Shown: piece by piece, positions 6,054 through 49,062 of the stretch
Layout of the letters: each line of letters starts with the position of its first letter
How positions within the stretch are numbered: position 1 is the first letter of the stretch
Source of the DNA: Methylophilus aquaticus
Lineage (GTDB): Bacteria > Pseudomonadota > Gammaproteobacteria > Burkholderiales > Methylophilaceae
Direction of reading: 5' to 3'
Assembly (NCBI RefSeq): GCF_030769565.1
Contig: NZ_JAVCAP010000031.1
Coordinates: forward strand, 62,001-126,000
DNA: 64,000 bases
Translations under genes and position numbers: made by a program
Notes under the pieces: model-generated
What the model saw: only the letters and a program-made list of their open reading frames with translations
What the model was told of the DNA's origin: nothing
Database searches by the model: none

Positions 6054-7031
6054 TTAACGATCGACCACAGCGGTCTGCGTGTCGGACTCCTCAAGTTTGA
6101 CCGGGGCGACAGACGGCAGTGCTTTCACAAACTTGTTGAGGGATTTTACATCGACCACCGCCGAGATTGGCGTGCGGGTGGTGGATTGGTTAACCACGGG
6201 CGGTTGGCGATAGCGGGAGAGCGTTTCGGTCACCTCTGCGATGGCCGCACCATCAAAGATGAGCCGACCTTGCAGAAAGGCAAACGCATCTTTGGCTGAT
6301 TTTTGCAGTGGCAACGGCGCAGAGTGGGCTTTTACCTCTGCAACCTGGTCGTTGGTCAGCAACACGCTGCCAGGCTGCCCGCTGGCGAGTGACTCCACCA
6401 GCACTTTGCCATGATCAACAGCCACCACAGTTTTGTGATTGATCATATTCACCAGGAAGCGGGTGCCTTTTACCGTGATTCTGGCGTGAGCACTTTCTAC
6501 CACAAAAGGTCGATCAGCGTCTTTCACCACCTCAAACACGGCCTGGCCTTGCAGTAATTTGACGTAGCGCTTGTCACGATAATAGAGCACCTGGGTCTGG
6601 CTTTGTGCATCCAGTACGAGTTTGCTGCCGTCAGACAGGTAATGTGTCACCATTTGTCCTGGTGCACTGGCTTGCGCAATCGTTTCCAATGGTTTGTCAT
6701 GCCAGTTTTGCCAGGTGTTAAAGCCGAATATCCCCGAAATAGATAGCATCACTAGGGCACCTAATTTAGCCAGTTGCGTTGTTTTGTGCCGTTTGCGGAT
6801 ATCGTCATCCAGTTTTTTCATCGACATCGCCTGCGAAAGCTGCTTGATGTGCTCAGAAGAGTCAAAGTCCTCCCAGGTATCTGCAATGGTTTGGTAAGCC
6901 TCCCGGTTGACTGCAGAAGACATAAGCCAAGCTTCAAACTTGCTACGGTCAACATGGTCTGGTGCGGCATCCTTCATGCGCAAAAACCATTTGGAGGCTT
7001 GTTCAAGCACACTGTTTTTGGACTTGATCAT
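6054..7031 (-). CDS. FecR-type anti-sigma/sigma-regulator protein (locus 1)
   Basis: At 325 residues it has the standard FecR length. The cytoplasmic N-terminal DUF4880 part has ASKWFLRMKD and SKFEAWLMSS (sigma-binding). A single membrane helix follows near residues 88-105, then the periplasmic FecR domain with DGSKLVLDAQSQ, VVDGKVL-like repeats, GTRFLVN and FDGAAIAEVTETLSRY. It relays the loaded state of the STN receptor to the sigma factor. Its start lies two bases after the stop of the sigma gene, which indicates translational coupling, and the receptor starts 91 bases downstream. Cognate pairing is inferred from gene order. Confidence 0.92.
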   Translation of the reverse strand: MIKSKNSVLEQASKWFLRMKDAAPDHVDRSKFEAWLMSSAVNREAYQTIADTWEDFDSSEHIKQLSQAMSMKKLDDDIRKRHKTTQLAKLGALVMLSISGIFGFNTWQNWHDKPLETIAQASAPGQMVTHYLSDGSKLVLDAQSQTQVLYYRDKRYVKLLQGQAVFEVVKDADRPFVVESAHARITVKGTRFLVNMINHKTVVAVDHGKVLVESLASGQPGSVLLTNDQVAEVKAHSAPLPLQKSAKDAFAFLQGRLIFDGAAIAEVTETLSRYRQPPVVNQSTTRTPISAVVDVKSLNKFVKALPSVAPVKLEESDTQTAVVDR

Positions 7032-7033
7032 AC

Positions 7034-7588
7034 TTATTCGCCAAGCAAGTGGCGTTTTGCCAGCGCAATATCTACCAGCGCGCGTATCATATGTTTTTCT
7101 ACCATGTTGAGGCTGATCTTGAGATCAGTGGCAATGTCGGTTTGCGCCATCCCCTCAATCCGGTGCAGCCAAAATACCTGGCGACATTTGGGAGGTAGGC
7201 AGTCAATGATATTTTGCAACGCCTGCATGCGTTGCTTGATATCTGCAATTTTTTCGGGAGAGTGCTGGTAGCTCAACTCCTGCTCAGGTGACTGAATTTC
7301 CTGGTCACTCGTCTGGCTGATATCAATAAAATAGGCAGCCTCTCGGTAATGGTCAATGATTGTATTTTTGACGATACCGCGCAAATACGCATGCGGCTTA
7401 TGAATCTGCTTGAGACTGTTTTTGACCGCAAACTTGACAATCGCATCATGCAACACATCGTTTGCCACATGCACATTTCTCGTCTGCCGATAAATGCTGC
7501 TGAACAATTCCGTATACACCCACTTAAGGTTAAGGTTGCTCCAGTAAAAATCAGTATTGGCTTGAGTAAAAAAGCGCATAGAGCTCAA
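7034..7588 (-). CDS. ECF sigma factor, FecI-like (locus 1)
   Basis: This 184-residue protein has sigma region 2 (VANDVLHDAIVKF, LRGIVKNTIIDHYR) and region 4 (LPPKCRQVFWLHRIEGM, then the helix-turn-helix DIATDLKISLNMVEKHMIRAL). It lacks regions 1 and 3, as FecI-type ECF factors do. It is the first gene of a sigma-FecR-receptor operon and should direct transcription of the receptor gene. The start at 7588 or the ATG three codons later are both possible. No convincing Fur box was seen upstream, unlike the third FecIR locus in this window. Confidence 0.92.
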   Translation of the reverse strand: MSSMRFFTQANTDFYWSNLNLKWVYTELFSSIYRQTRNVHVANDVLHDAIVKFAVKNSLKQIHKPHAYLRGIVKNTIIDHYREAAYFIDISQTSDQEIQSPEQELSYQHSPEKIADIKQRMQALQNIIDCLPPKCRQVFWLHRIEGMAQTDIATDLKISLNMVEKHMIRALVDIALAKRHLLGE

Positions 7589-11893: not shown

Positions 11894-12877
11894 TTATTTT
11901 GCTTGAGTGTAGGTTTCCAGTTGAATGCCTTCTGGGCTGCGGTGGACGCGGACATTGGCGATGCGTGGCAAGGTGGCGATAAAGCTGTTGCTATCTTTAA
12001 TGGCGACCACTGCGCTGATTTTCTCCTCTGAGCGATCATCGTTGGTGATGGGTTTTTGTTGGTAGCGAGAGACCGTTTCGGCGATTTCTGAGAGTGAGGC
12101 TTGGTTAAATACCAGTGTGCCGGTCATAAAGCGGAAGTAGTCTTGGGCGTTCACTTGCGGGCGGGTTTGTAAACCATGCTGGTTGATTTCTGCTACCTGG
12201 TTATTTTGCAGAATCAGCGCTTGCTGGCCTTGCTTGTTGAGCACTTGCACTTTGCCGTGATCGACGCTGACACGCTCAAGTTGTTTGAGCTTGTTGACGG
12301 CAAACCGGGTGCCCAGCACGGTGACTTTAAGTCGCTGGGTTTCTACCACGAAGGGGCGGCTGCGGTCTGGTTGCACTTCAAACACGGCTTCGCCTTGCAG
12401 CAGGTCGATGTGGCGCTGATTGCGGTAATACTTGATCTCAATGCGCGAGTTGGCGTTGAGCGTAACACGGCTGCCATCGTCCAGGGTTTGCGTGGTGAGT
12501 TGGGCAGTGCTGGTATGTGCAACCAACTGCATGGTTGGGGTGGCTTGCCATGCTTGATATTGATGGTAGCTTGCCCAGCCGATGCATATCGCAGCGACCA
12601 CGCTGGCCACAGTCCCAGCCAGCTTTTGGCGGGCCTTTTTGCGCTCGCTTTGTTTGAAGAAGCGATCTGCTTTTCTAGCTGTTGCCAGGGTTTGCAGTTC
12701 GTCCAGTGAGTCCAACCCACGCCAGGCTTCACTGATGCTCAGGTATTCCTGCTGGTGTAGCGGGCTTTGCATCAGCCAGGCTTCAAACTGGCTGCGTTCC
12801 GGCGCATCGACGGGGGCTTCCTGCATGCGGATAAACCAGCGGGCAGCGGTTTCACTGATTTTGTTGGGCGCAGGCAT
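11894..12877 (-). CDS. FecR-type anti-sigma/sigma-regulator protein (locus 2)
   Basis: This 327-residue FecR homologue has the N-terminal ARWFIRMQEAP and SQFEAWLMQSP sigma-contact segment. A membrane helix lies near residues 87-106 (GTVASVVAAICIGWASY). The periplasmic FecR domain includes LDDGSRVTLNANSRIEI, GEAVFEVQPDRSRPF, GTRFAVN and FNQASLSEIAETVSRY. Its ATG overlaps the sigma gene stop by one base (TAATG), so the two are translationally coupled. It should connect the receptor at 8073-11792 with the sigma factor at 12877-13374. Confidence 0.92.
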   Translation of the reverse strand: MPAPNKISETAARWFIRMQEAPVDAPERSQFEAWLMQSPLHQQEYLSISEAWRGLDSLDELQTLATARKADRFFKQSERKKARQKLAGTVASVVAAICIGWASYHQYQAWQATPTMQLVAHTSTAQLTTQTLDDGSRVTLNANSRIEIKYYRNQRHIDLLQGEAVFEVQPDRSRPFVVETQRLKVTVLGTRFAVNKLKQLERVSVDHGKVQVLNKQGQQALILQNNQVAEINQHGLQTRPQVNAQDYFRFMTGTLVFNQASLSEIAETVSRYQQKPITNDDRSEEKISAVVAIKDSNSFIATLPRIANVRVHRSPEGIQLETYTQAK

Positions 12878-13854: not shown

Positions 13855-15909
13855 ATGACACGCAAAATTCTGGTCACTTCTGCACTCCCTTATGCCAATG
13901 GCAGTATTCATTTGGGGCATCTGGTTGAATATATTCAAACTGATATCTGGGTGCGCTTTCAAAAAATGCAGGGGCATACTGTGCATTATGTGTGCGCAGA
14001 CGATACGCATGGCACGCCGATTATGCTGCGTGCGGAAAAAGAGGGCATTACACCAGAAGCGTTGATTGAAAAAGTGCATGCCGAACATAGCCAGGATTTT
14101 GCTGATTTTCTGGTGCAATTTGATAACTACTATTCCACCAACTCCGAAGAAAATCGTGCGCTTGCCTCGGGCATTTACAAAGCCCTTAAAGCCAATGGCA
14201 AAATTGCCACTAAAACCATAGAGCAATATTTTGATCCGGTGAAAACCATGTTTTTGCCGGATCGCTTTATCAAGGGTGAATGTCCGAAGTGCCATGCCAA
14301 AGACCAGTATGGCGATAACTGTGAAGTCTGTGGTGCGACCTACAGCCCCACTGATCTGATTAATCCGTTTTCAGCGGTGTCCGGTGCGACACCCGTGCGC
14401 AAGGAAACTGAACATTACTTTTTTAAACTGAGCGAGTGCGCAGACTTTTTGCGTGACTGGACCAGATCTGGCACCTTGCAAGCCGAAGCTGCCAACAAAA
14501 TGAGCGAGTGGGTAGGTGAGGCGGGAGAAAACAAACTTTCAGACTGGGATATTTCACGCGATGCGCCGTATTTTGGCTTTGAAATCCCCGATGCACCCGG
14601 CAAGTACTTTTACGTGTGGCTGGATGCGCCGATAGGCTATATGGCCAGCTTTAAAAATCTGTGCAGCAAAGCCGGTATTGATTTTGATGAGTATTGGAAA
14701 AAGGATTCTTCAACCGAGTTGTACCACTTTATCGGCAAGGATATTCTGTATTTTCATGCCTTGTTCTGGCCAGCCACGCTCGAATACAGCGGGCATCGCA
14801 CGCCCACGCAGGTATTTGCCCATGGTTTCTTGACCGTCAACGGTGAAAAAATGTCCAAGTCGCGTGGTACGTTTATTACGGCACGCAGTTATCTTGATCA
14901 TGTGCAGAATCCTGAGTATTTGCGTTATTACTATGCCGCCAAGTTGAATGGCAGCATGGAAGACATCGACCTCAATCTTGAGGACTTTGTGGCGCGGGTG
15001 AATAGCGACCTGGTGGGTAAATATATCAATATCGCCAGCCGTACTGCCGGTTTTGTCGCCAAAAAGTTTGATAACCGGTTGACGTTGCCAAGCCATAGTG
15101 TCATTGATGACATGCGTGCGGCGGCACCTGCGATTGCTGAAGCCTATGCCGCCCGTGATTTCGCACGCGCGTTACGCGAAATTATGAAATTGACTGATGC
15201 TGCCAATGCTTATGTCGCAGACACAGCGCCATGGGTGCTGGCCAAGGATGACAGCAAAACAGCCGAGCTGCATGCGATTTGCAGCAATGCGCTGGAGATG
15301 TTCCGTCTGCTGACCATTTTTCTGAAGCCAGTATTGCCGAATATTGCGCAAGCTGTAGAAACGTTTCTCAATGTTTCGCCGCTGCAATGGGCGGATGTGG
15401 CGACGGGTCTGGGTGCGCAACAGATACAGGCCTACAATCATATGATTACCCGCATAGAGGGCAAGCACATCGAAGCCATGGTCGAAGCCAATAAGGAGAG
15501 CTTGCAGCCGGAAGCCAAACCAGCTGCGACAGAGACCAAACCTTTATCGTCTGCGGACGAAATTGCGCATGATCAAGCTGAGTACATTTCGATTGACGAC
15601 TTTACCAAAATTGATTTGCGCATTGCCAATATTGTCAGTGCCGAGCATGTGGAAGGCGCAGAAAAGTTGCTTAAATTGATGCTGGATATTGGCGAAGAAA
15701 AGCCGCGTCAAGTGTTTGCCGGAATTAAGTCAGCTTATGATCCGGCGACGCTAGTCGGGCGTCTGACCGTGATGGTGGCTAACCTTGCCCCGCGCAAAAT
15801 GAAGTTTGGGATGAGTGAGGGCATGGTGCTTGCGGCCAGCGACGAACGTGGAGGGCCTTATATTCTTGCGCCTGACAGTGGAGCGCAGGCGGGAATGCGC
15901 GTGAAATAA
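13855..15909 (+). CDS. metG: Methionyl-tRNA synthetase
   Basis: This 684-residue enzyme charges tRNA-Met with methionine. It has the HIGH-type motif [11 protein letters not shown] near residue 14 and a zinc-binding knuckle [18 protein letters not shown] near residues 143-160. The catalytic KMSKS motif lies near residue 331. A C-terminal tRNA-binding OB-fold domain (about residues 575-684: [21 protein letters not shown]) is typical of the dimeric form. Length and domain order are normal. The ATG lies inside TCATGACACGC with no strong Shine-Dalgarno. It is monocistronic by position, followed by a MITE-like element. Confidence 0.97.
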
Positions 15910-15941
15910 ACGATCACTTTGAGGGGTGGTTTTTTGTAAAA

Positions 15942-16080
15942 GGCATCTCTAATAATGCATATGCCGTCGCGATACTGTGTTGCTCATAAAAAAATTCTCC
16001 TTACATATTAACTATGTGCGGCGTCTAAATTTTTAAATCGCGTCAAGGCTAGCTTAGCAATTTGAATTATTAGAGACGCC
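15942..16080. mobile_element. MITE-like element derived from an insertion sequence
   Basis: Terminal inverted repeats GGCATCTCTAATAAT (15942) and ATTATTAGAGACGCC (16066) match at 14 of 15 positions and bound 139 bp. Read on the minus strand, the interior holds AAGGAG, a T-run and a start codon for MSNTVSRRHMHY, which then hits a stop at the far repeat. The element therefore looks like an IS reduced to its two ends plus the ribosome-binding site and first codons of its transposase. The ends resemble IS5-type elements, but the family is uncertain. No clear target duplication was identified. It fills most of the metG-ccoI gap; the remaining 180 bp are A/T-rich and should contain the ccoI promoter. 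Confidence 0.7.
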
Positions 16081-16260
16081 CTAAACACATTGGTTATGAA
16101 CAAAGCTGACTGCGTATTGTCTCTAGTTTGTCCCATATCAATGTGTTTATGGGCGGTGTATGTTGCAATATTACTTGCTAAAACTTCTCTAACCCATTGA
16201 TTTATATTATATACAATCATATAATATAAATTTATATATTGTCTATCAGGCATTGTCCAA

Positions 16261-18561
16261 ATGACAGATTCGCTTACAGCGGGTAACACAAATCCTTGGC
16301 AGGGCTTGGATGTCCAGTCTGAGTGGGAGCGTTTTAGTCAGCGCCACACGCAGGAGCCGGATATATGGACCTCTCATGTTTGGGTGGACAATATGCATTG
16401 CGCTGCATGCAGCGGTCGCATTGAACAGTCGGTTAAACAAATGCATGGCGTGCTTGGTGTGCATGCCAGTGCTGCTTCCAAGCGCGTCAAAGTGATTTGG
16501 GATGCAAACGTCGTACATCCTTCCCAATGGTTTGCCAATCTGAACGCCATTGGCTATCCGGCATTGCCAGTCAACGAATACCATGCGGTGACTGATAGAA
16601 CACGCGATCAGCGGAAAATGCTATGGCGGTTGGTGGTTGCAGTGTTCTGCATGATGCAGGTCATGATGTATGCCTACCCGACCTATGTGTCCGACAGCAA
16701 CGACATTACCCCGGATATGATTCAGTTGCTGAAATGGGCATCATGGCTGCTGACTTTGCCGGTGATGCTGTTTTCTTCTACACCTTTTCTCTCGCAAGCC
16801 TGGCTGAGTCTGCGTCAGCGTCAGCTGGGCATGGATGTGCCTGTTGCGCTTGGCATTATAGTGGCCTTTGTGATAAGTACGCTGGCGACCTTTGCACCTG
16901 GCGGCTGGTGGGGGGATGTTACTTATTATGACTCGCTCACTATGTTTGTCAGTTTTTTGCTGTGTGGCCGCTGGCTCGATGTGAAGTTACGCAACCGGAC
17001 TGCCGGTGCGTTGGAAAACATGATGCGTCGCTTACCACATGCTGTGCTTAAGAAAAATGAAGCCGGTGAATGGGTGCAGATTGCCGCGAGTAATATCGAT
17101 GTTGGTGATGTATTGTATGTCCGGCCGGGTGAAGTCTTTGCCGCCGACGGAAAGCTGATTGCAGGTAACACAAGCGTCGATGAGTCCATGCTGACTGGCG
17201 AATCAGAGCCGGTGTTAAAGTCTACAGGTGCGCAAGTGATTGCCGGTTCAGGTAATTTGACTTCAGTAGTAGAAATGCAGGTGCAGCAAGTCGGCGAAGG
17301 CACCCAATATCATGCACTTGTCAATTTAATGGCTTCAGCCTCTACCGAAAAACCTGGTATTGCATTGCTGGCTGACAAAGTAGCCCAGCCGTTTTTGTGG
17401 GGCGTGTTGCTGGCGGCCTTGTTTGCGGTTATTTTTTGGTGGACCACCGATCCGGTTAAAGCGGTAATGTCGGCAGTTGCCGTGCTGGTGGTCACTTGTC
17501 CTTGTGCATTATCGCTCGCCACACCTGCGGCCATGTTGGCCAGTGCTGGAACCTTTGCCAAAGGTGGTGTACTTATCCGTCGTTTACAGGCCATTCAGGC
17601 GCTCAGTGAAATTGATACTATCGTCTTTGATAAAACCGGCACGCTGACAGAAAATTTGCAGCAGGTGGTGTTGCTGGATAGCCATCCGGATTGGAACAGC
17701 ACTTTGTTGCTGAATTTGACGGCTACCATTAGTAGAGATTCATTGCATCCTGTTGCTAAGGCTTTGTATACATTTGCTAAAAAAGAGAACGCTGCTGAGC
17801 ATTTGCCGATGCAGGATTGGCAAGAAATTGTGGGTGGCGGTATTTCTGCAACATTAGTCACACAGGATCAGCAGTCTATTGCGTTAAAATTGGGCAATGC
17901 ATCATTTTGCGAGGTGCATACGGAGGCTGATGCCGGTGTGCAGCGCTTGGTATACTTGGTAGCCGGTCACACTGTGTTGGCAAGATTTGGTTTGTCTGAG
18001 CAAACCAAGCCGCAAGCAAAAGCGGCCATTTCACAATTAATTTCGCAAGGCTATGAGATTCAGCTCTTATCTGGTGATAGAATAGCCGCCGTGAAAAATC
18101 TGGCAGCGAAACTGGGAATCCAGGTCGCACTAGGTTTACAAAAAGCAGAAAATAAGCTGCAAAACGTCAAGGCGTTGCAACAACAGGGGCGAAAAGTTTT
18201 AATGGTAGGTGATGGTTTGAATGACGGCCCTGTCATTGCCGCAGCGCATACTTCTATTGCAATGGGCACCGGCGTTCCACTCACGCAGGCACAGGCCGAT
18301 ATGGTGGTTATGGGTAATGATATCGGTGTGTTGGTGTCGCTCATTTCTCACTGCAAAAAAACCATCCTCATCGTAAAACAAAATTTGTTATGGGCAGCGT
18401 TGTATAACGCTGCCGGGGTGCCTTTGGCGATTATGGGACTTCTTCCTGCCTGGCTTGCCGGCTTAGGCATGGCGGCCAGTTCGCTATTGGTGTTGCTAAA
18501 TGCATTGCGCCTTACCAAGTGGCAAAAAGGCGTGTTGGCAGAAAGGGCAAAGGTCGCCTGA
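16261..18561 (+). CDS. ccoI: Copper-translocating P-type ATPase for cbb3 oxidase (CcoI/FixI)
   Basis: This 766-residue P1B-type ATPase has an N-terminal heavy-metal-binding domain with the CxxC motif MHCAACSGR (about residues 43-51) and several membrane helices. TGES lies near residue 318. The metal-site motif CPC (TCPCALSLATP) lies near residue 413, the phosphorylation site DKTGTLT near residue 457 and GDGLNDGP near residue 651. Its place directly before ccoS and ccoNOQP identifies it as the CcoI/FixI type, which supplies copper for CuB of the cbb3 oxidase, and not the detoxifying CopA. The stop overlaps the ccoS start (TGATG). Confidence 0.93.
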   Translation: MTDSLTAGNTNPWQGLDVQSEWERFSQRHTQEPDIWTSHVWVDNMHCAACSGRIEQSVKQMHGVLGVHASAASKRVKVIWDANVVHPSQWFANLNAIGYPALPVNEYHAVTDRTRDQRKMLWRLVVAVFCMMQVMMYAYPTYVSDSNDITPDMIQLLKWASWLLTLPVMLFSSTPFLSQAWLSLRQRQLGMDVPVALGIIVAFVISTLATFAPGGWWGDVTYYDSLTMFVSFLLCGRWLDVKLRNRTAGALENMMRRLPHAVLKKNEAGEWVQIAASNIDVGDVLYVRPGEVFAADGKLIAGNTSVDESMLTGESEPVLKSTGAQVIAGSGNLTSVVEMQVQQVGEGTQYHALVNLMASASTEKPGIALLADKVAQPFLWGVLLAALFAVIFWWTTDPVKAVMSAVAVLVVTCPCALSLATPAAMLASAGTFAKGGVLIRRLQAIQALSEIDTIVFDKTGTLTENLQQVVLLDSHPDWNSTLLLNLTATISRDSLHPVAKALYTFAKKENAAEHLPMQDWQEIVGGGISATLVTQDQQSIALKLGNASFCEVHTEADAGVQRLVYLVAGHTVLARFGLSEQTKPQAKAAISQLISQGYEIQLLSGDRIAAVKNLAAKLGIQVALGLQKAENKLQNVKALQQQGRKVLMVGDGLNDGPVIAAAHTSIAMGTGVPLTQAQADMVVMGNDIGVLVSLISHCKKTILIVKQNLLWAALYNAAGVPLAIMGLLPAWLAGLGMAASSLLVLLNALRLTKWQKGVLAERAKVA

Positions 18562-26978: not shown

Positions 26979-27683
26979 ATGTTAGCCAGTTTACTCGCCA
27001 CCGCCTTTATCATGGGTCTGGCAGGCGGACCGCACTGCATTGCCATGTGTGGCGCAGCCTGCGGCGCCATGCAAGCACCCAGCAATGCCCGCAGTATTCC
27101 CATCCGCGTCATGCAAAGCATCCCCTGGAGTTTTTATCTCGGCAGACTCATCGGCTACGCCGCGCTCGGCGCACTTGCCGCATCCTCACTCCGTGGCCTG
27201 GCCTGGCTTTCAAACCAGAGCGGCGTATTTCAACCCCTATGGACCTTCTCGCACACCCTGATTTTTGCCTGGGGCCTTTTACTGCTCATCACCGGCCAGC
27301 AACCCAACTGGGCCGTGCAGGGCGCCCAACAAGTCTGGGGCTGGATTAAACAACGCACACAACACGCCAGACTCGGCTATTTTTTCACTGGCACCTTATG
27401 GGCCTTGCTGCCTTGTGGCCTGCTATATTCAGCAGTGATGCTAGCCTCACTGCAATCGCACTGGCTGCAGGGCGCACTGGTCATGGCCGCCTTCTCGCTC
27501 GGCTCCGCCACCATCCTCGCCACCGCACCACTTATCTGGAAAAGCAGCCAGCAAACCCTGCCCAAGTGGCTTAGTGAAGCCAATGGCATGCGACTGAGTG
27601 GCCTGATACTCATTGCTTTGAGCGTAATAGCGTTATGGATGGACCTCATGCACCACGATAAACTGTGGTGCCAGATGCTGTAA
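26979..27683 (+). CDS. SafE/UreH-like membrane protein (COG2836)
   Basis: This 234-residue protein has about six membrane helices and the N-terminal signature GLAGGPHCIAMCGAACG, with conserved cysteine and histidine that could bind a metal, mirrored by LLPCGLLYSAV in the second half. COG2836 proteins commonly neighbour cbb3 assembly genes and are related to DsbD/CcdA and UreH-type transporters. A role in copper or redox delivery for oxidase maturation is inferred from context. It is annotated in many genomes as a sulfite exporter, which the sequence alone does not support. Confidence 0.8.
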   Translation: MLASLLATAFIMGLAGGPHCIAMCGAACGAMQAPSNARSIPIRVMQSIPWSFYLGRLIGYAALGALAASSLRGLAWLSNQSGVFQPLWTFSHTLIFAWGLLLLITGQQPNWAVQGAQQVWGWIKQRTQHARLGYFFTGTLWALLPCGLLYSAVMLASLQSHWLQGALVMAAFSLGSATILATAPLIWKSSQQTLPKWLSEANGMRLSGLILIALSVIALWMDLMHHDKLWCQML

Positions 27684-27692: not shown

Positions 27693-27797
27693 CTTAAAAT
27701 CGCATTAAAAATCAGTTGCGAATATCCAGCCGATTACTGTATTTTTCATATTAAAAATTGTTACGCTCTGTGTATGGCTTGTTTAAGGTGGGCGCGC

Positions 27798-28908
27798 TCA
27801 AAATTGAAGTGCAACATTTTTTGAAGGAGAATGTTGCATGGGGAAATACAAGCATTTAAGTATAGAATAACGAAGTTTTATTCAGGTGCAGTTAACCTCA
27901 GGGTTAAAGCCTAGTTTGATTGCGGCTGGGTTAGGCAGGTCTGTTTCGACAATTTTGCGTGAACTTGGACGCAACGGATGGGAGAAGCCTCAACACAGGC
28001 GTGGTCGAGGGCGTCCAGCTATCGCAGGTAAGTACAGAGCAGTAGTCGCTCAAGACAGAGCGGATAGCTTATCAACCAAGCCAAGGATAGAAAGGCGGCT
28101 ACAGATTGGGAATCGACTGTGGCAAGTTGTGATGGGCTATTTAAAGCAAGGCTACTCACCCGAGCAAATTGCTGGCACACTTAAAACCGTGAACGCAGAC
28201 CATCCACAGTTGCAGGTTTCGCATGAGACCATATACAGCGCCATTTATTTAATGCCGCGTGGAGAGTTGCGCACTGAAGTGATAGGCTGGTTGCGTTTTG
28301 GGCATACGAAACGCCGTCCAAGAGCGCGTGGCGAGGATAGGCGTGGCAAAATCCCTGATATGGTCAGCATTCATGACAGGCCGCCAGAAGTGGATGAACG
28401 ATTAGTCCCTGGACACTGGGAGGGTGACTTGATTAAAGGGAAAGGCAACCGCAGTGCGATAGGCACGATTGTGGAAAGAACAACGCTGTTTACGGTGTTA
28501 GCCAAGATGGAAAATGCAACGGCTGAATCTGCGGTAAGTGGTTTCAGCCATGTGTTAAATCGCATTGAGGCACAGAAGCGATTATCGATGACGTATGATC
28601 AAGGGCGCGAGATGGCTAAGCATGTAGAGTTAACCGAGAGCACTGGCATCTCCGTTTACTTTGCTGACCCGCATAGTCCTTGGCAACGCGGGATTAACGA
28701 AAACACGAATGGTTTGTTGCGCCAATACTTGCCCAAGGGCGAAGATTTAAGCGTCTTCAGCCAAGACGAGTTAGATGCGATAGCGTGGAAACTCAATACA
28801 AGACCCCGCAAATCGTTAGGCTTCAAATGCCCTGCTGAGTTGTTCACGCCAGACGCATTTGATTTTAGGCAGCATCATGCTGCTGCTTTTGCACTTCAAC
28901 CTTGAAAC
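27798..28908. mobile_element. IS30-family insertion sequence
   Basis: One transposase gene is bounded by inverted ends containing TTGAAGTGCAA (left, about 27804) and its complement TTGCACTTCAA (right, about 28889-28899, inside the last codons). Exact tips are uncertain by a few bases and no target duplication was recognised. The element abuts the recombination site of the DUF262-HNH cassette. Confidence 0.8.
27838..28905 (+). pseudogene. IS30-family transposase with premature stop
   Basis: The natural start is the ATG at 27838, seven bases after AAGGAG; it opens MGKYKHLSIE. Codon 11 is TAA (27868-27870), where relatives continue with an acidic residue before RSFIQ. After it the same frame runs uninterrupted to 28905. 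It has the IS30 helix-turn-helix (AAGLGRSVSTILRELGRNGW) and the DDE domain: GHWEGDLIKGKGN, MTYDQGREMAKH and ADPHSPWQRGINENTNGLLRQYLPKG. A single nonsense mutation therefore disrupts an otherwise intact gene. Restart at the GTG at 27886 would lose the first 16 residues and might leave some activity. Confidence 0.85.
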
Positions 28909-28968
28909 CGCCATTTATAGCCCCCGGCCTAAATAAAAAAATTAGGTTCTTTTTTGGGTCTAATTAAC

Positions 28969-28975
28969 GTTATGC
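28969..28975 (+). other. Cassette recombination point (GTTATGC core site)
   Basis: AACGTTATGC contains GTTRRRY-type core GTTATGC, the exact reverse complement of the GCATAAC at 30574-30580. In an excised circular cassette the two would be the complementary R' and R'' boxes of one attC site. The site is 28 bases before the ATG of the cassette gene and 61 bases after the IS30 end. Whether the left side is an attI, another attC or a secondary site cannot be told, since no integrase is in the window. Confidence 0.65.
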
Positions 28976-29003
28976 ATTCGTAAATTCCAAAGGAAATTAG
29001 TCA

Positions 29004-30572
29004 ATGGCCTTGCGATCCAATCTTGTAAACCTAGACGCCATGATCAAGAGGGAGGATTTCGCGGCTTCGGACGCAGAGCCCTCGTCATTTGAGAACGTGT
29101 CCACAATTTCACTCCGCGATTTTACGAAAGGCGGATTGATCGGACCAAGCTTGAGAAAGCCCGACTTCCAGAGAGAAACAAATCACTGGGGCCCTGATCA
29201 AGTCGTTTCGCTGCTTGAGTGTTTCGTAAATGGCGATTTAATTCCTTCGGTGATTTTATGGCAGTCACCTACCTATCTTTTTGTCATTGATGGCGGCCAT
29301 CGTCTCAGTGCCCTTAAGGCATGGATTGACGATGACTATGGTGATGGCCCGACTTCACAACCATTTTTCGGCTATCAAATTTCTGATGAGCAAAAGAAGA
29401 ATGCCGAAAAGGTTCGCACCCTAGTTAGTAAGCGGATCGGGAGTTGGCAACACTATCTCGCCAAAGCAGAGGATCAGAATTTGGATTCATCTGAACGTAA
29501 AAAGCTAAATGCGCTAATTACTCGTGGTCTTCCTATTCAATGGGTAAAAGGTGATGCCGATAAAGCGGAAAGTTCTTTCTTCAAAATCAACACAAAAGGA
29601 ACACCGCTTGACGACATCGAAGAGCTTTTGCTGAAGAGCAGAAAGAAACCAATATCTATTGCTGCACGAGCAATTATCAGAGCGGGAAAGGGACATCGAT
29701 ACTGGTCTTCCTTTGATAAAGATTCCGCCTCAAAAATTGAGTCGCTTGCGAGCGGACTTCACTCTGTTCTGTTTGACCCCGAGATCAAGAGACCGATTAA
29801 AACACTGGACCTGCCTCTTGGTGGCCCGAAGGGAGTCAGGACGGCTCTCCAAGCTTTGATTGACCTAGCGTTAATTGCCACAAGAAACCAGGAAGGGTTA
29901 CCAAAAGGAATCTACGACACCGCTGATGATTTTGATGGTACAGAGACAATCGCGATTCTCACCAAAGCTCTCGCGCTGGCTAAACGGGTAACAGGAAACG
30001 ACAGTGGTAGCTTGGGCCTACATCCAGCCGTCTATTTTTATGGCCCAACGGGCCGGCATTCTGGCCCCATGTTTATGGGAACGATGACGCTCGTCGGTAG
30101 AAAACTATCAAATAATGATAAAACCTTCTTTCAAAAATTCACAGCAGTACGCTCCAAACTGGAAGATATTTTGGTCAATCACAAGGACCTAATCGCGACA
30201 ATTCTGCAAAAACATGTGAGCCCAAAGAGAGTTGATAAATACGCAGACTTTCTTGACGAGTTGATAAATCACCTCACCACAAACGACCTTCCGTCGGAAA
30301 TGGATTTGGTGAAAATGTCGGGATTAGACGGAAAAGTTGTTGTTGGGAGTGGTAGCGATGTTTCAAAGGAGTTTTCTGACGATGTAAAGAGCGGCGCATT
30401 TATCAATGCCGCACTAAGTTCATCAATAAAATGTCCGCTTTGCAACGGGTACTTGGATACTGAGAAATCTGTTTCTTATGATCATGTTGTGCGTGCGCGT
30501 GAAGGCGGTCTTGGACATTCAAACAACTGTCACCTGACGCATCCATATTGCAACCAGTCGGTTAAGAATTAA
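29004..30572 (+). CDS. DUF262 protein with C-terminal HNH endonuclease domain
   Basis: The 522-residue protein begins with a DUF262 (ParB/sulfiredoxin-like) domain. It has KPDFQRETNHWGPDQVVSLL, then FVIDGGHRLSALKAW near residue 94, which corresponds to the DGQQR nucleotide motif, and FFKINTKGTPLDDIE, the family's usual third block. The C-terminus is an HNH nuclease with zinc cysteines: CPLC near residue 476, DHVVRAREGG near residue 493, and a final HPYCN. This combination resembles the fused GmrSD-like type IV restriction and related anti-phage proteins, but it is a short stand-alone form. It lies in an integron-type gene cassette with no own neighbours. A defence role is inferred, not shown. 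GGAAA precedes the ATG. Confidence 0.82.
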   Translation: MALRSNLVNLDAMIKREDFAASDAEPSSFENVSTISLRDFTKGGLIGPSLRKPDFQRETNHWGPDQVVSLLECFVNGDLIPSVILWQSPTYLFVIDGGHRLSALKAWIDDDYGDGPTSQPFFGYQISDEQKKNAEKVRTLVSKRIGSWQHYLAKAEDQNLDSSERKKLNALITRGLPIQWVKGDADKAESSFFKINTKGTPLDDIEELLLKSRKKPISIAARAIIRAGKGHRYWSSFDKDSASKIESLASGLHSVLFDPEIKRPIKTLDLPLGGPKGVRTALQALIDLALIATRNQEGLPKGIYDTADDFDGTETIAILTKALALAKRVTGNDSGSLGLHPAVYFYGPTGRHSGPMFMGTMTLVGRKLSNNDKTFFQKFTAVRSKLEDILVNHKDLIATILQKHVSPKRVDKYADFLDELINHLTTNDLPSEMDLVKMSGLDGKVVVGSGSDVSKEFSDDVKSGAFINAALSSSIKCPLCNGYLDTEKSVSYDHVVRAREGGLGHSNNCHLTHPYCNQSVKN

Positions 30573-30573
30573 T

Positions 30574-30660
30574 GCATAACATGGCGGTCGACCCCGTTCC
30601 CTTTGGTCACTGGACGCTGCGCGATGAGGCCGCGCAGCGCCGGTCACCTCTACGTTAGGG
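30574..30660 (+). other. Integron attC site of the DUF262-HNH cassette
   Basis: The 87-bp element begins with R'' box GCATAAC one base after the stop codon and ends with R' box GTTAGGG. Between them lies a palindromic core with CGCTGCGCG pairing with CGCGCAGCG around ATGAGGC, plus GGTCAC/GGTCACC segments. Size, position right after the stop and box consensus (RYYYAAC...GTTRRRY) fit an attC recombination site. The box complementarity to the site at 28969 supports one complete gene cassette of about 1.69 kb. The following stretch to 30865 holds only a 29-codon frame at 30671. Confidence 0.75.
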
Positions 30661-30865: not shown

Positions 30866-31084
30866 ATGTTCCGCGCACTGATCTATGCTTTAAGCATTCT
30901 CCATCTCGGGCCTGGCTTTGCCTTTGCGGTGGTTGCTTTTGGGTGTGATTCTTCTCTTTCCTGGTTTGAGTCTATTTGTCAGCAGGACACTTTTTCTGCA
31001 TTTATCAAACTCACGCTGGGTGCGTGGGCAGTCATGATTGTGGTGTTGCTGGCTGTCTTGGCTTATTCGCGCAGCACGCGCTAG
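30866..31084 (+). CDS. Small hydrophobic membrane protein
   Basis: This 72-residue product has two predicted membrane helices (about residues 3-24 and 47-67) with a short loop containing two cysteines (FGCDSSLSWFESICQQD). It ends in basic residues. No family is recognised. AAAGGC lies before the ATG. A longer frame of the next gene overlaps it on paper, but that gene probably starts at 31210. Existence as a real gene is plausible but unproven. Confidence 0.5.
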   Translation: MFRALIYALSILHLGPGFAFAVVAFGCDSSLSWFESICQQDTFSAFIKLTLGAWAVMIVVLLAVLAYSRSTR

Positions 31085-31209: not shown

Positions 31210-32505
31210 ATGTTGATGAATATCAGTGACGATTGTTTTAGTATTTTTTATAAGGGCTTGCAGTTTTTTGTGGGGGCTGGCTTGTTGCTCGGGGCTTTGC
31301 ACGGGCAGGCTATTGCCCAAGACAACGCAGATGAGACGGTGCCCAGGTTGTTGCTTTCTGGTGCAGCGGCTGAAGCCGGTAAAGAAGCGCAGGGCAAGGA
31401 GCCGGAGCCGCCGCGGATTACTTCGGTGTTTGGCACGCAGGCGCTCAAGGTATACCAACTGCCGTTTGAGGATCAATACCCGACAGGACCGTTTGAGCGG
31501 TTGGATAAAAACGGTTTTTTGTTTATCAGCAAGTGCGGGGAGGTTTACTTTGCCAGGCTGAATGAAAAACTGGAGTTGGTTAAACCCGGCAAGCCGCTGG
31601 CCAAGTTTATTCCTGGCAACGAGAGTTCGGCCGATGAAAGCAGCAGCAAGCAGGTGGTTTACTGTCGTGAACTGTCGGGGGTAAAAGATTCACTGCTGAT
31701 CGGCAACACGCTGTATGTGGCTTACACCACTTGGGATGATACTAATAATGGGGTGCGATTGGCGGTGAGCGAGTTTGATGTGGATGTGGAAAATAGCGAG
31801 GTGAGTTTCAGCCGTGAAATCTATTTGAGCCGTCCAGCGATCAAAGAGCCTATTTTGGGGCATCAGGTTGGTGGCAAGCTTGCGCTGGGTGAAAATGAAC
31901 GCACCCTTTATTTGAGCATTGGCGACTTTTCCAAGCCTGATCGCGTGCAGGATAAAACCACTTCGCTGGGCAAGGTGATCCGCATTAACCTGCAACAGTT
32001 GAATGCAGAGGTGTATGCCACTGGCTTTCGGTCACCTTCGGGCGGGTTGTATTTTGATAAAGAGACCAGCGAGTTATGGCTGACAGACCATGGGCCGCGT
32101 GGCGGGGATGAAATTAACCTGATTAAGCGCGGCAAAAACTACGGCTGGCCGATTGTGAGTTACGGTACGATTTATGAGCGGGATGGCATGAGTGGCTATT
32201 ATGGCAATAAATTTAATAACCATGATGGTCACGAAAAGCCGCTGATGACCTTTGTGCCTTCGATTGGCATTGGCCCGCTGGCAAAGTACCCTTCCACCGG
32301 GCGCAATGACTTTTGGGATAATGATTTGTTTGTGGCCGGAATGGGTAACACCACGCTGTACCGGGTGCGCAAAGAGGGCACTAATCTGGTGTATGCCGAA
32401 CCGTTGCTGCAAGGCTTTCGCATCCGTGCATTGCAAATTGATGCCAAAGGGACGTTTTATCTGAAAACAGACCACAACCAGTTGCTGATCTCAGATCAGG
32501 AATAG
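31210..32505 (+). CDS. PQQ-dependent sugar dehydrogenase-like beta-propeller protein
   Basis: From the ATG at 31210 the protein has 431 residues with a signal peptide (hydrophobic stretch then HGQAIA-Q). Its central and C-terminal part matches the soluble glucose/aldose sugar dehydrogenase propeller: HQVGGKLALGENERTLYLSIGD, VYATGFRSPSGGLYFD and DHGPRGGDEINLI, where the last two are the PQQ-contacting blocks of the family. Such enzymes oxidise sugars or related alcohols in the periplasm using PQQ. Presence of pqqA 1.5 kb away is consistent. The N-terminal part (about residues 35-110) is specific to this protein. The frame is open further upstream, but an earlier start would overlap the small gene at 30866. 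Confidence 0.82.
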   Translation: MLMNISDDCFSIFYKGLQFFVGAGLLLGALHGQAIAQDNADETVPRLLLSGAAAEAGKEAQGKEPEPPRITSVFGTQALKVYQLPFEDQYPTGPFERLDKNGFLFISKCGEVYFARLNEKLELVKPGKPLAKFIPGNESSADESSSKQVVYCRELSGVKDSLLIGNTLYVAYTTWDDTNNGVRLAVSEFDVDVENSEVSFSREIYLSRPAIKEPILGHQVGGKLALGENERTLYLSIGDFSKPDRVQDKTTSLGKVIRINLQQLNAEVYATGFRSPSGGLYFDKETSELWLTDHGPRGGDEINLIKRGKNYGWPIVSYGTIYERDGMSGYYGNKFNNHDGHEKPLMTFVPSIGIGPLAKYPSTGRNDFWDNDLFVAGMGNTTLYRVRKEGTNLVYAEPLLQGFRIRALQIDAKGTFYLKTDHNQLLISDQE

Positions 32506-32612: not shown

Positions 32613-33314
32613 TTAAAAGCGTTTGCCAAAGCCAACACTGATGACCCATGGATTGATGTCTAGCTCGTCAATTTTGGTCCAGCGGTTGCCGGTCAGCGCT
32701 GCGCTTTTTAATTCAACATCCGTGTTCAGCCATAGATATTTCACATCGGCGTTGAGCTGCCAACCATCTTTCAAATTAACATCCATCCCGGCTTGCAGGG
32801 CAGGGCCAAAGCTGTCGCGGTCGATTCTGATTTTTTGACCATCAATCGCGCCAGCAGAGCCTCTTAAGTATCTATCAAGCATAAATGTTGCATTAATCCC
32901 GGCGCCAACATAAGGATCAAATGTTTGGTCTGGGTTAAAGTGCCATTGGACGGTCAATGTAGGTGGTAGCAGGTCAACTTCACCGAGTTTTTGATTGTTC
33001 ACGGCACCGCCGCTGTCACCGCTGATTTTGACATCGTGCTTGGTGCCGAGCGCCAGAATCAATTCTGTGGCGATGTTTTTTGTCCAGTAGTAACTGATGT
33101 CCAGTTCTGGAATGGTGTTGCTGTCAACTTTCAGTTCTGAACTGGGTGTCATGACATTCGCTACGTTTTTATTCACATATTTGCCCAGATCACTATTTTC
33201 ATTTGGGCTGATGTTGGTGGCGCGCAAACGTACTACCCAGTCCCCTTGTTCTGCATGCGCAGAAAAGGCAGGTAGCAAAGAAGCCAGGATTAAGCTGAGG
33301 GCGGTTTTTTTCAT
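32613..33314 (-). CDS. ompW: OmpW-family outer membrane protein
   Basis: This 233-residue protein has a signal peptide ending AHA and the OmpW opening WVVRLRATNISPNE. It has VDLLPPTLTVQWHFNP and YVGAGINATFML, and the terminal strand WVISVGFGKRF with a C-terminal phenylalanine for BAM-dependent assembly. It forms an eight-stranded barrel that may pass small hydrophobic compounds. It is monocistronic, with its own terminator and a 152-base gap to the next minus-strand gene upstream. Confidence 0.92.
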   Translation of the reverse strand: MKKTALSLILASLLPAFSAHAEQGDWVVRLRATNISPNENSDLGKYVNKNVANVMTPSSELKVDSNTIPELDISYYWTKNIATELILALGTKHDVKISGDSGGAVNNQKLGEVDLLPPTLTVQWHFNPDQTFDPYVGAGINATFMLDRYLRGSAGAIDGQKIRIDRDSFGPALQAGMDVNLKDGWQLNADVKYLWLNTDVELKSAALTGNRWTKIDELDINPWVISVGFGKRF

Positions 33315-45762: not shown

Positions 45763-48700
45763 ATGACTTTGAACGACTACATCCAGATTGTTAATCAACG
45801 CTACCAGGCAGGCAACGCAACCGAACACAGCTATCGTGGTGATCTGCAAAATCTCCTGCAAGCTTTATTGCCTAATGTCGATATCACCAATGAGCCCAAG
45901 AGGATAGGCTGCGGAGCACCAGATTACATCATTAGCCGAAAAGGGAAAGATATCCCGATAGGTTATATAGAAGCCAAAGATGTGGTTGAAGACATCAACG
46001 CCAAAAAACATCAGGCACAGTTTGAGCGTTACAAAGCTGCACTAGACAACCTGATCATCACTGATTATTTACAGTTTCAATTTTATAAAGATGGCAAGCT
46101 GATAGAGACCATCAAGATTGCACAATTCAACAACGGCACTATTCAAGCCTTGTCACAAAACTTTGAGCGTTTTCAGGCGCTGGTTCAAAACTTTGCTTTA
46201 GTGGTGACCCAAAGCATTAAATCACCCACTAAACTCGCCGCAATGATGGCTGCAAAAGCCAAACTGATGGCGCAAGTGATTTTTGATGCACTGCAACAAG
46301 ACGATGAGCAGCAGCAAAACAGTGAGTTACAGGCTCAGCGTGAGGCGTTTAAAAACATCCTGATTCACGATATTGATAACGCCCAATTTGCTGATATTTA
46401 CGCGCAAACCATTGCCTATGGCTTGTTTGCCGCACGTTATCACGACCCAACATTGCCTACTTTCTCGCGTGAAGAGGCTGCAACGCTGATTCCTAAAAGC
46501 AACCCCTTTTTGCGCAAACTTTTTCAAACAGTGGCTACTTACAGCTTGGATGACAATGTTGGTGAGCGATTGTTATGGATAGTAGAAGAACTGGTACAAG
46601 TGTTTTTAGCCACTGACGTGGCAAAAATCATGCAGAGCTTTGGCAAAAGTACCCGCCAGCAAGACCCGATTGTGCACTTTTACGAAACCTTTTTGGCTGA
46701 GTACGACCCCAAACTGCGTAAAGCGCGTGGTGTTTGGTATACGCCAGAGCCAGTGGTCGATTTTATTGTCCGTGCAGTCGATGACATTCTAAAAACCAAA
46801 TTCAACCTGCCTCAAGGCTTGGCCGATACCAGCAAAATCACCCGTGAAATTGAAAGCATAGAGCCCGGTAGCAAAGGCAAACCTGTCAAAAAAACAAAAA
46901 CCTTTCACCGTGTACAAATTTTAGACCCTGCCACTGGTACGGGCACATTTTTAGCCAAAACAGTCGAGCACATTTACCAAAACAACTTTGCCAGCATGCA
47001 AGGCATGTGGCCTGCCTATGTGAAAGAGCATTTAATCCCAAGGCTTAATGGCTTTGAATTGCTGATGACCAGCTATGCCATGGCGCATTTAAAGCTGGAT
47101 ATGCTGCTCACGCAAACGGGCTATCAAGCTGAAAACAACAATGAGCGTTTTCAAATCTACCTCACCAATAGCTTGGAAGAACATCACCCGGATACAGGCA
47201 CCTTGTTTGCCAGTTGGCTGAGTAGCGAGGCAAACGAGGCAAACCACATCAAGCGCGATGCGCCTGTGATGGTGGTCATCGGCAATCCGCCATATTCGGT
47301 GAGCAGTAGCAACAAAAGTGATTGGATTCAAAACCTGCTCAAAGACTACAAAAAAGACCTCAACGAGCGCAATATACAACCGCTATCAGACGACTACATT
47401 AAATTTATTCGCTTTGGGCAACACTTTATTGATAAAAACGGTGAAGGTGTGCTGGCCTACATCAGCAACAACAGCTTTATTGATGGCCTCATTCACCGTC
47501 AAATGCGCAAACATTTGCTAGAGAGTTTTGACGAAATTTATATTTTAGATTTGCACGGCAACGCCAAAAAGAAAGAAACCGCGCCCGATGGCAGCAAAGA
47601 TGAAAACGTGTTCGATATTATGCAAGGCGTAAGCATTAACCTGTTTGTTAAACATAACGCCGTCATTCCTGCGAAAGCCGGAAGCCAAGTTGAACCAGAA
47701 CAAACACCTAAAATGGATTCCCGTCTACGCGAGAATGACGACGCGGAAACTAAGCCACTTGCAAAGGTCTTTCACCACAGCCTGTATGGCAAGCGCGAGG
47801 CAAAATATGAAGCATTGAATGCAGGTGGGTTTGAGACTTTGCCTTGGCAGGAGATTAGCTACAAAACTCCAGAATTTTTGTTTATACAAAAGGATGCGGA
47901 AGTTGAGCAGGCTTATAAACAAGGCTTTTCAATCAATGAGTTATTTCCGCTTAATTCAAGTGGCATCAGCACACATCGCGATCATTTTGTGGTTGACATG
48001 CATAAAGAGAAACTCGCACAGCGCATCCAGCATTTTTATGATTTATCGGTTAGTGATGATGCAATCAAGAATGAAGTGGCGTTGAAAGATAATCGTGATT
48101 GGCAGTTAAGTTCTGCTAGGAAAAGCTCGAAGTTTGATGATCACTTAATTAAAACAGTGACATATCGCCCTTTTGATAATCAGTTTATTTATTACGATGG
48201 GAATTTGATTGATTTTGGCAGGCAAAAAGTAATGCAACATTTGTTAGCGGGTGAAAATTTCGCTTTCGTCTGTTTGCGCCAATCAAGAAATATGGAGCAA
48301 GGTACATTTTTTATAACGAAAGATTTGGTAATCAAGGATACGATTTCGTTGCTAGATAGATGCTCTACTTTCCCACTCTACACCTATCCTGACTCCACCG
48401 ACTTGCTCGCCAAAACCACCCGCACCCCCAACCTCAATATGCAAATTGTCAACACCATTGCACAAGGCTTGGGGCTGACATTTACCACCGAAAAAACTTC
48501 CCCCGTCATTCCCGCGAAAGCGGGAATCCATGTTGAACTTAAACAAAACCAAAAAATGGATTCCCATTTTCACGGGAATGACGAACAGACCTTTGCACCG
48601 ATAGATTTACTCGATTATATCTACGCCGTGTTGCACAGCCCACGCTACCGCGAAACCTACAAAGAGTTTTTAAAAATTGACTTTCCGCGTGTGCCTTACC

Positions 48701-49062
48701 CCAACAATACCGAAACATTTTGGCAACTGGTGGCGCTAGGTAGTGAGTTACGCAAAACCCATCTGTTGGAAACTGCTGCTAACTCGACAATGATTTATCC
48801 AGTGTCAGGCAACCACGTGGTGGGCAAGCTGCGTTATGAAGACAGCAAGGTTTACATCAACGAAACCCAATACTTTGACCACGTGCCAGCACTGGCGTGG
48901 AATTTTTATATAGGCGGCTACCAACCCGCCCAAAAATGGCTAAAAGACCGTAAAGACCGCACCTTGACGCGTGAAGATATTCAACATTATCAACGTATTA
49001 TCCATGCTCTCTGCGAAACAGACAGGCTGATGCAAGCGGTGGATAAGGTGTTTGAGGTGTAA
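45763..49062 (+). CDS. Type ISP-like restriction-modification enzyme (nuclease + N6-adenine methyltransferase)
   Basis: The 1099-residue protein starts with a Mrr/PD-(D/E)xK-type domain: GAPDYIIS, then IGYIEAKD (about residues 55-70). A helical linker follows. The methyltransferase has SAM motif ILDPATGTGTFLAKTVE near residue 386 and the catalytic NPPYSVSS near residue 508. A C-terminal target-recognition region has IDLLDYIYAVLHSPRYRETY and YDHVPALAWNFYIGGYQPAQKWLKDR. This resembles type ISP/IIG enzymes but lacks the helicase domain of classical ISP proteins such as LlaBIII. Two short segments (about residues 634-660 and 915-940) are translated REP elements. The partner gene overlaps functionally, starting four bases after the stop. 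Confidence 0.88.
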   Translation: MTLNDYIQIVNQRYQAGNATEHSYRGDLQNLLQALLPNVDITNEPKRIGCGAPDYIISRKGKDIPIGYIEAKDVVEDINAKKHQAQFERYKAALDNLIITDYLQFQFYKDGKLIETIKIAQFNNGTIQALSQNFERFQALVQNFALVVTQSIKSPTKLAAMMAAKAKLMAQVIFDALQQDDEQQQNSELQAQREAFKNILIHDIDNAQFADIYAQTIAYGLFAARYHDPTLPTFSREEAATLIPKSNPFLRKLFQTVATYSLDDNVGERLLWIVEELVQVFLATDVAKIMQSFGKSTRQQDPIVHFYETFLAEYDPKLRKARGVWYTPEPVVDFIVRAVDDILKTKFNLPQGLADTSKITREIESIEPGSKGKPVKKTKTFHRVQILDPATGTGTFLAKTVEHIYQNNFASMQGMWPAYVKEHLIPRLNGFELLMTSYAMAHLKLDMLLTQTGYQAENNNERFQIYLTNSLEEHHPDTGTLFASWLSSEANEANHIKRDAPVMVVIGNPPYSVSSSNKSDWIQNLLKDYKKDLNERNIQPLSDDYIKFIRFGQHFIDKNGEGVLAYISNNSFIDGLIHRQMRKHLLESFDEIYILDLHGNAKKKETAPDGSKDENVFDIMQGVSINLFVKHNAVIPAKAGSQVEPEQTPKMDSRLRENDDAETKPLAKVFHHSLYGKREAKYEALNAGGFETLPWQEISYKTPEFLFIQKDAEVEQAYKQGFSINELFPLNSSGISTHRDHFVVDMHKEKLAQRIQHFYDLSVSDDAIKNEVALKDNRDWQLSSARKSSKFDDHLIKTVTYRPFDNQFIYYDGNLIDFGRQKVMQHLLAGENFAFVCLRQSRNMEQGTFFITKDLVIKDTISLLDRCSTFPLYTYPDSTDLLAKTTRTPNLNMQIVNTIAQGLGLTFTTEKTSPVIPAKAGIHVELKQNQKMDSHFHGNDEQTFAPIDLLDYIYAVLHSPRYRETYKEFLKIDFPRVPYPNNTETFWQLVALGSELRKTHLLETAANSTMIYPVSGNHVVGKLRYEDSKVYINETQYFDHVPALAWNFYIGGYQPAQKWLKDRKDRTLTREDIQHYQRIIHALCETDRLMQAVDKVFEV
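47661..47742. repeat. REP/BIME-like element inside the ISP-type gene (copy 1)
   Basis: CGTCATTCCTGCGAAAGCCGG and, in opposite orientation, GATTCCCG...GAGAATGACG flank a linker of about 35 bases. The frame is kept and encodes VIPAKAGSQV and, after the linker, MDSRLRENDD. This is the widespread VIPAKAG...MDSRLRGND signature of translated repeats. The arms are partly diverged. Confidence 0.75.
48504..48583. repeat. REP/BIME-like element inside the ISP-type gene (copy 2)
   Basis: CGTCATTCCCGCGAAAGCGGG and the inverted arm CACGGGAATGACG surround a linker. The same reading frame as in copy 1 is used (VIPAKAGIHV, then MDSHFHGND). Copy 2 has better preserved arms, so it may be the younger insertion. 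Confidence 0.75.

What the first reader, a model, noticed from the sequence alone, without database searches (positions are those of the whole stretch)
28969..30660. Integron-type gene cassette carrying a DUF262-HNH protein
The stop codon is followed at once by an attC-like 87-bp site (GCATAAC ... GTTAGGG) with a palindromic core. The point before the gene reads GTTATGC, the exact complement of the R'' box. That is the pattern of an excisable cassette. DUF262 and HNH domains together occur in type IV restriction and anti-phage proteins. A single mobile defence cassette far from any visible integrase is of interest.
Basis: partly seen in the sequence, partly recalled or inferred. Interest (0 to 1): 0.68.

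Follow-up and report, generated by a model that had tools for sequence, protein, structure and literature searches.

The report
Stranded integron cassette encoding a nuclease
A bacterial gene-capture site, cut off from the enzyme that serves it and moved elsewhere in the chromosome, still holds one captured gene for a DNA-cutting enzyme that probably defends against phages.

Summary
Window 28970-30654 is an integron gene cassette: a DUF262(GmrSD_N)-HNH gene followed by a canonical attC at 30574-30660 (L''/L' pair 7/7 with one extrahelical base). It is the only window match of an attC covariance model built without it (E=0.0047). The integrase gene is absent; attI homology starts at the first base after an IS30 element. 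The small ORF and dehydrogenase that follow the cassette lie 3-14 kb beyond the integrase in the genus's chromosomal integron, whose flanks and intact integrase remain on C15. So this is a relocated, integrase-less integron fragment with one cassette. The gene occurs in 1 of 22 genus genomes. Its homologues recur beside EcoRII-type methylase/Vsr/endonuclease modules (10 of 66 loci; also phage KL3, 80% identical). Best reading: a GmrSD-like, modification-dependent anti-phage nuclease. Excision, expression and defence were not tested.

The parts
26979..27683 (+). TauE-like gene (name recalled), left outer neighbour of the block
   Evidence: Found in 19 of 22 genus genomes; followed by other genes, not an integron, in relatives
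27791..28912 (+). IS30-family element; inverted repeats 27791-27814 and 28889-28912; transposase frame 27838-28905 with an in-frame stop at codon 11
   Evidence: Transposase NF033563, E 4.7e-89; inverted repeats; stop; single copy in the genome
28913..28975 (+). attI site without its integrase gene
   Evidence: 90% identical to C15:91800-91859 beside intI; 79-93% to the same place in 9 other genus genomes; homology starts at 28913
28970..30654 (+). gene cassette, between the two G^TT crossover points
29004..30572 (+). 522-aa DUF262 (GmrSD_N) - HNH protein
   Evidence: PF03235 E 1.8e-14; HNH residues invariant in 33 of 33 aligned members; HNH match in 33 of 33 at E up to 1
30574..30660 (+). attC site: R'' 30574-30580, L'' 30586-30593, L' 30642-30648, R' 30654-30660
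   Evidence: covariance model hit E 0.0047; box pairing; C14 relatives
30866..31084 (+). 72-aa ORF that in the genus lies beyond the integron
   Evidence: 61-70% identical copies in five integron loci
31210..32505 (+). glucose/sorbosone dehydrogenase (PF07995), also beyond the integron in the genus; start codon approximate
   Evidence: 80-86% identical copies in five integron loci, sixth in L168; PF07995 E 1.3e-55; single copy here
32613..33314 (-). OmpW-like gene (name recalled), right outer neighbour; next to the TauE-like gene in L131, L132, L134

Best explanation
The locus is a relocated fragment of the genus's chromosomal integron: an attI site, one gene cassette in first position, and two genes that lie beyond the array in relatives. 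The integrase gene is missing, and an IS30 element abuts the attI where that gene should be. The cassette entered attI by ordinary IntI-catalysed attI x attC recombination (inferred), before or after the move; the intact integrase on C15, which sits beside a 90% identical attI, could still act on it in trans (inferred, untested). The cassette gene encodes a ParB/Srx-type DUF262 domain joined to an HNH nuclease. Its most likely job is that of a nucleotide-regulated, modification-dependent restriction nuclease that works like GmrSD, BrxU and SspE and cuts incoming phage DNA. Shown: the sites, the synteny, the domains, the conserved catalytic residues, the neighbour associations. Inferred: capture, mobilisation in trans, nucleotide use, DNA target, defence.
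For: attC. attI and integrase elsewhere. Genus arrays headed by the same attI. Synteny of the block. Gene present in 1 of 22 genus genomes with relatives scattered over many phyla. Domains and residues. Model resembles ParB N-domains, BrxU, SspE and HNH nucleases. C5-methylase, Vsr and EcoRII-type endonuclease are the three commonest neighbour families of the gene, within 2.3 kb in 10 of 66 loci, 0 of 51 control loci; phage KL3 gp44, 80% identical, sits beside the same trio.
Against: The genome-wide attC score is weak by itself (E 0.219). Box scans at gene ends show no general enrichment of attC among relatives (0 of 60 strict, 5 of 60 lax against 3.5% in control tiles). No target-site duplication flanks IS30, and in relatives 3-14 kb lie between the integrase region and the small ORF, so the move was not a clean one-step transfer. 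No sigma-70-like promoter was found upstream of the gene. The protein has DGGHR rather than DGQQR and HNH rather than DUF1524; Foldseek E 0.025 and Z under 6 are weak. Ten of 66 loci with RM neighbours leaves 56 without.
Confidence: 0.7

Rival explanations
1. The cassette was inserted by an integrase at a secondary, non-attI site next to an IS30; the resemblance of the upstream DNA to attI is incidental.
For: No integrase gene adjoins the site.
Against: Sixty bases at 90-93% identity to the integrase-proximal DNA of C15 and G009, ending at the crossover point.
Confidence: 0.03
2. The block was not moved within this genome but came in from a related species by horizontal transfer, as a second partial integron, and the resident ORF-dehydrogenase pair on C15 was lost.
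For: The window attI differs from the C15 attI at 10 of 61 aligned columns, more than C15 differs from G009 (3 of 61), so it is not a recent within-genome copy.
Against: Few sites; the alignment differences include a shifted run of A; no donor found; dehydrogenase is as distant from all relatives as expected within the genus (80-86%).
Confidence: 0.3
3. The protein is not a defence nuclease but a phage- or plasmid-borne nuclease with another role (DNA processing, competition between mobile elements) or a partner needed by C5 restriction-modification modules.
For: Occurs in phages KL3 and pf8 and on plasmids, and beside EcoRII-type modules.
Against: Most copies are solitary in bacterial chromosomes (56 of 66 without such a module); the domain combination is that of type IV restriction enzymes.
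Confidence: 0.3
4. The junctions are assembly artefacts.
For: Draft genome of 45 contigs; contigs C35 and C42 begin with the same 118-bp repeat beside integron material.
Against: IS30 is single copy and the block is inside a 130-kb contig; no repeat at the right junction was seen.
Confidence: 0.05

Closest known systems
Integron gene cassettes and integrase-less attC clusters (CALIN)
   Same: Promoter-poor single gene plus attC; integrase elsewhere in the genome. Relocated integrons and attC clusters away from the integrase are described for Xanthomonas (PMC12444791, passages read).
   Different: Here a single attC is still seated in an attI, which CALINs by definition need not have; IS30 adjoins it.
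Anti-phage cassettes of chromosomal and mobile integrons
   Same: Compact defence genes, including shortened type IV systems, carried as cassettes (reviewed in PMC12409362, passages read, which cites the original studies; I did not read those).
   Different: No function tested here, and there is no large array at this locus.
GmrSD-family type IV restriction enzymes (GmrSD, BrxU, SspE, TgvAB)
   Same: N-terminal DUF262 with QR and FxxxN motifs, helical middle, C-terminal D-H-N nuclease signature; BrxU is the best Foldseek match.
   Different: DGGHR in place of DGQQR; PF01844-type HNH with C-x2-C and C-N in place of DUF1524; 522 aa single protein; different neighbours.
Burkholderia phage KL3 gp44
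   Same: 80% identical over all 522 residues.
   Different: In a P2-like phage beside EcoRII methylase, Vsr and EcoRII endonuclease, not in a cassette; listed as unknown by its authors (PMC3091744, passages read).

Membership tests
Integron gene cassette | attC with R''/R' and L''/L' pairing and an extrahelical base | tested here: met
   the R'/R'' pair in the integrated state is 5 of 7, 7 of 7 in the circular form
Integron gene cassette | one gene bounded by two G^TT crossover points | tested here: met
   28969/28970 and 30654/30655
Integron gene cassette | excised and integrated by IntI | not testable with these tools
   needs an excision assay
Complete integron | attI recombination site | tested here: met
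Complete integron | integrase gene beside attI | tested here: not met
   no integrase in the window neighbourhood or as a remnant; present on C15 and C42
CALIN | at least two attC sites without a nearby integrase | tested here: not met
   one attC only in the window
GmrSD-family type IV restriction enzyme | N-terminal DUF262/GmrSD_N domain | tested here: met
   PF03235 54.8 bits, cut-off 33.2
GmrSD-family type IV restriction enzyme | DGQQR motif | tested here: not met
   D96-G-G-H-R100 in the window protein; D96, G97, H99, R100 invariant in 33 of 33
GmrSD-family type IV restriction enzyme | C-terminal DUF1524 domain | tested here: not met
   no DUF1524 match; HNH (PF01844) in 33 of 33 members at E up to 1, 12.5 bits for the window protein, below its cut-off of 21.4
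GmrSD-family type IV restriction enzyme | D-H-N-N nuclease residues | tested here: met
   D493, H494, N508, N517 invariant in 33 of 33; motif as described
GmrSD-family type IV restriction enzyme | cleaves modified, not plain, DNA | not testable with these tools
   needs purified protein
PADLOC NsnA | match over the whole model | tested here: not met
   21.5 bits over positions 68-128 of 385

The most novel reading that the evidence does not exclude
This genome runs a dispersed integron: orphan attI sites scattered over the chromosome (the window; another type on C14 and in the distal part of the C15 locus) are served in trans by integrases at other loci, so cassettes can be captured and fixed away from the main array. 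And the DUF262-HNH protein is a mobile extra nuclease of EcoRII-type C5 restriction-modification modules that also travels alone as a cassette and phage accessory gene.
Probability: 0.18. Interest if true: 0.65.

Novelty: new variant of a known kind. Interest (0 to 1): 0.46.

Why it matters
It shows one way in which a first-position cassette can become fixed: attI and cassette part from the integrase by rearrangement, so that a likely defence gene stays put while an integrase elsewhere in the cell may still reach it. It also points to a compact DUF262-HNH family, spread over many bacterial phyla, phages and plasmids, whose commonest neighbours are cytosine-C5 restriction-modification genes, which makes its function directly testable.

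Tried and rejected
Rfam scan for attC: no match. A first ad hoc attC scan was too loose to use. An integrase remnant left of IS30: only a 46-bp, 76% match in the wrong orientation, rejected. A simple reciprocal inversion: the genes that follow the TauE-like gene in most near relatives are on C13 beside unrelated genes, so not supported. Reading the block as the exact distal end of the array: rejected, since 3-14 kb lie between in relatives. Cassette status of relatives by box scan at gene ends: not enriched (60 of 66 loci tested). The covariance model finds attC at E under 0.02 in 3 of 66 loci: Pseudoxanthomonas yeongjuensis L049 (both sides of the gene), Salinisphaera L050 (upstream), Paucibacter L065 (just upstream of the matched part). 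Alkalimonas L039 and Saccharospirillum L022 look attC-like to the eye only. Sequence search of solved structures gave only the C-terminal part of a group II intron maturase at E 0.0077. Families not listed are not taken as excluded. Gene names TauE, OmpW, ChaN, HrpA, TrhO and HPP are recalled and come from no call.

Full report
Observation. The gene 29004-30572 is followed, after one base, by an 87-bp site: R'' GCATAAC, spacer ATGGC, L'' GGTCGACC, an imperfect G+C-rich hairpin, L' GGTCACC, spacer TCTAC, R' GTTAGGG. L'' less one extrahelical C pairs with L' at 7 of 7. The cassette start reads GTTATGC at 28969-28975, which on circularisation rebuilds an R' fully complementary to the cassette's own R''. 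A covariance model (R1) from 28 attC sites (26 from genus arrays, one each from C42 and C35 of this genome; window and C14 sites excluded) has this as its only match in 64 kb at E up to 10 (E 0.0047). Over the whole genome the match is weak by itself (E 0.219) beside seven others at E up to 1 (two of those are training sites). Two sites on C14 are 87% and 90% identical to it. A search of plasmid records finds the 3' part of this attC at 86% over 66 bp in an Azoarcus plasmid, 87% over 60 bp in a Serpentinimonas plasmid and 89% over 47 bp under OXA-21 annotations in resistance plasmids (23 records in all, 10 listed), so this type of attC circulates among cassettes.

attI. A search of the own genome with the interval before the cassette returned one other place, C15:91800-91859, 90% identical. 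It lies just upstream of a full integron integrase (TIGR02249, 461.9 bits). The same sequence lies beside the integrase in 9 of the 19 other genus genomes with an over-cut-off integrase (31 loci searched), at 79-93% identity, and heads arrays of attC-like sites in G007, G009, G014 and G015. In alignment the homology begins at window 28913 and runs through the crossover point. Base 28912 is the last base of the right inverted repeat of an IS30-family element, 27791-28912. So attI is here, its integrase gene is not, and IS30 stands where that gene should be. The IS30 transposase frame has a stop at codon 11, so the element may be dead.

Where the block came from. In 6 of 6 genus genomes examined (G004, G007, G009, G014, G015, G016) the 72-aa ORF and the glucose/sorbosone dehydrogenase that follow the window cassette lie beyond the integrase on the array side, 3-14 kb away. 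In this genome C15 keeps the near flank (TrhO-like gene, HPP-family gene, integrase, attI) and, further on, the genes that follow the dehydrogenase in relatives, but the dehydrogenase itself is single copy and in the window. The outer neighbours of the window block, a TauE-like gene on the left and an OmpW-like gene on the right, are directly adjacent in three more distant genus members (L131, L132, L134); in most near members the TauE-like gene precedes ChaN-like and HrpA-like genes instead, which here are on C13. The simplest account is relocation of an attI-cassette-ORF-dehydrogenase segment into the gap between the TauE-like and OmpW-like genes, with loss of the integrase and of the DNA between attC and the ORF. 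How it moved is open: there is no target-site duplication at IS30 and no integrase remnant. The window attI differs from C15's at 10 of 61 columns and from G009's at 8, while C15 and G009 differ at 3, so it is not a fresh copy of the C15 site; transfer from a relative remains possible.

The gene. It is in 1 of 22 genus genomes and 4 of 399 genomes drawn from the order at E up to 1e-60, the own genome included. In a collection of 84,980 species genomes 66 loci hold relatives, 42-70% identical where a long match is held: a pattern of horizontal spread. The closest found is gp44 of Burkholderia phage KL3, 80% identical over the full length. The N-terminal domain is GmrSD_N/DUF262. An alignment of 33 members (the window protein and 32 of the 66 loci; truncated, stop-bearing and some other loci left out) keeps a C-terminal signature C-x2-C ... 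D-H ... N ... H-x2-C-N invariant, and all 33 match Pfam HNH at E up to 1, the best at 3.3e-8, the window protein itself only at 0.16. A model (pLDDT 78.3, pTM 0.69) resembles ParB/Noc N-domains and the type IV enzymes BrxU and SspE in its N-terminal part and HNH nucleases at its end, all weakly (Foldseek E 0.025 for BrxU; Z up to 5.9). It departs from GmrSD proper in its motif (DGGHR) and in its nuclease (no DUF1524; motifs as given in PMC4619093, passages read).

Neighbours. All-against-all clustering of 339 neighbouring ORFs from 61 loci (5 truncated ones left out) puts a C5-cytosine methylase family first (9 loci), then Vsr and an EcoRII-type endonuclease (5 each) (names by their likeness to the KL3 genes). 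A search with KL3 gp45-47 finds one or more of them within 2.3 kb of the gene in 10 of 66 loci and in 0 of 51 control loci (361 kb against 765 kb), while one of two structural control proteins hits one family locus. In KL3, gp44 lies directly beside gp45-47; its authors list gp44 as unknown and describe 45-47 as a DNA modification module (PMC3091744, passages read). GmrSD-like proteins embedded in restriction-modification clusters are known (TgvAB, PMC12409362, passages read). I therefore favour a modification-dependent nuclease that complements classical restriction. Its target is not known.

Comparison with print. The searches DUF262 + integron + cassette (9 papers), DUF262 + Vsr + HNH (2 papers), integron + Methylophilaceae (18, 10 listed) and Methylophilus + integron + attC (0) gave listings in which I saw no description of this cassette or of a DUF262-HNH partner of EcoRII modules; preprints and most subscription journals are not in that library. 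That integrons carry anti-phage cassettes, and that chromosomal integrons get displaced and lose integrases, are both known. What differs here is a lone cassette still seated in an attI, moved together with genes from beyond the array, in a genome that keeps an intact integrase elsewhere. I rate it a new variant of known kinds.

Noticed in passing
L011 (G000:C14) 14000-16800; L016 (C15) 12470-12620; L017 (C35) 2280-2430: A second attI-like sequence type, nearly identical over about 38 bp, occurs three times: next to a truncated integrase on C35, and without an adjoining integrase on C14 (before three attC-like sites) and in the distal part of the C15 locus. Orphan attI-like sites thus recur in this genome.
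   Followed up: partly
L015 (C42) 1-118 and L017 (C35) 1-118: Both contigs begin with the same repeat of about 118 bp beside integron material, so the assembly breaks at integron sequences.
   Followed up: no
G000:C34:173730-173781: A further attC-like match (E 4.2e-4, model positions 8-53) near a contig end.
   Followed up: no
window 45763-49062: A type IIG / type ISP restriction enzyme-methyltransferase of 1099 aa, 15 kb from the cassette.
   Followed up: partly
L176 (phage pf8, MN710383) 5992-7530: A filamentous Pseudomonas phage carries a 39% identical DUF262-HNH homologue that is annotated as a repressor C protein, probably wrongly.
   Followed up: no
L045 7551-7997 and L055 7551-7916: In Thiobacillus and Granulicella the Vsr match begins 0-3 bp from the end of the DUF262-HNH gene, inside the methylase/endonuclease cluster, as expected of an operon.
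   Followed up: partly
window 27838-28905: IS30 transposase with an in-frame stop at codon 11.
   Followed up: yes
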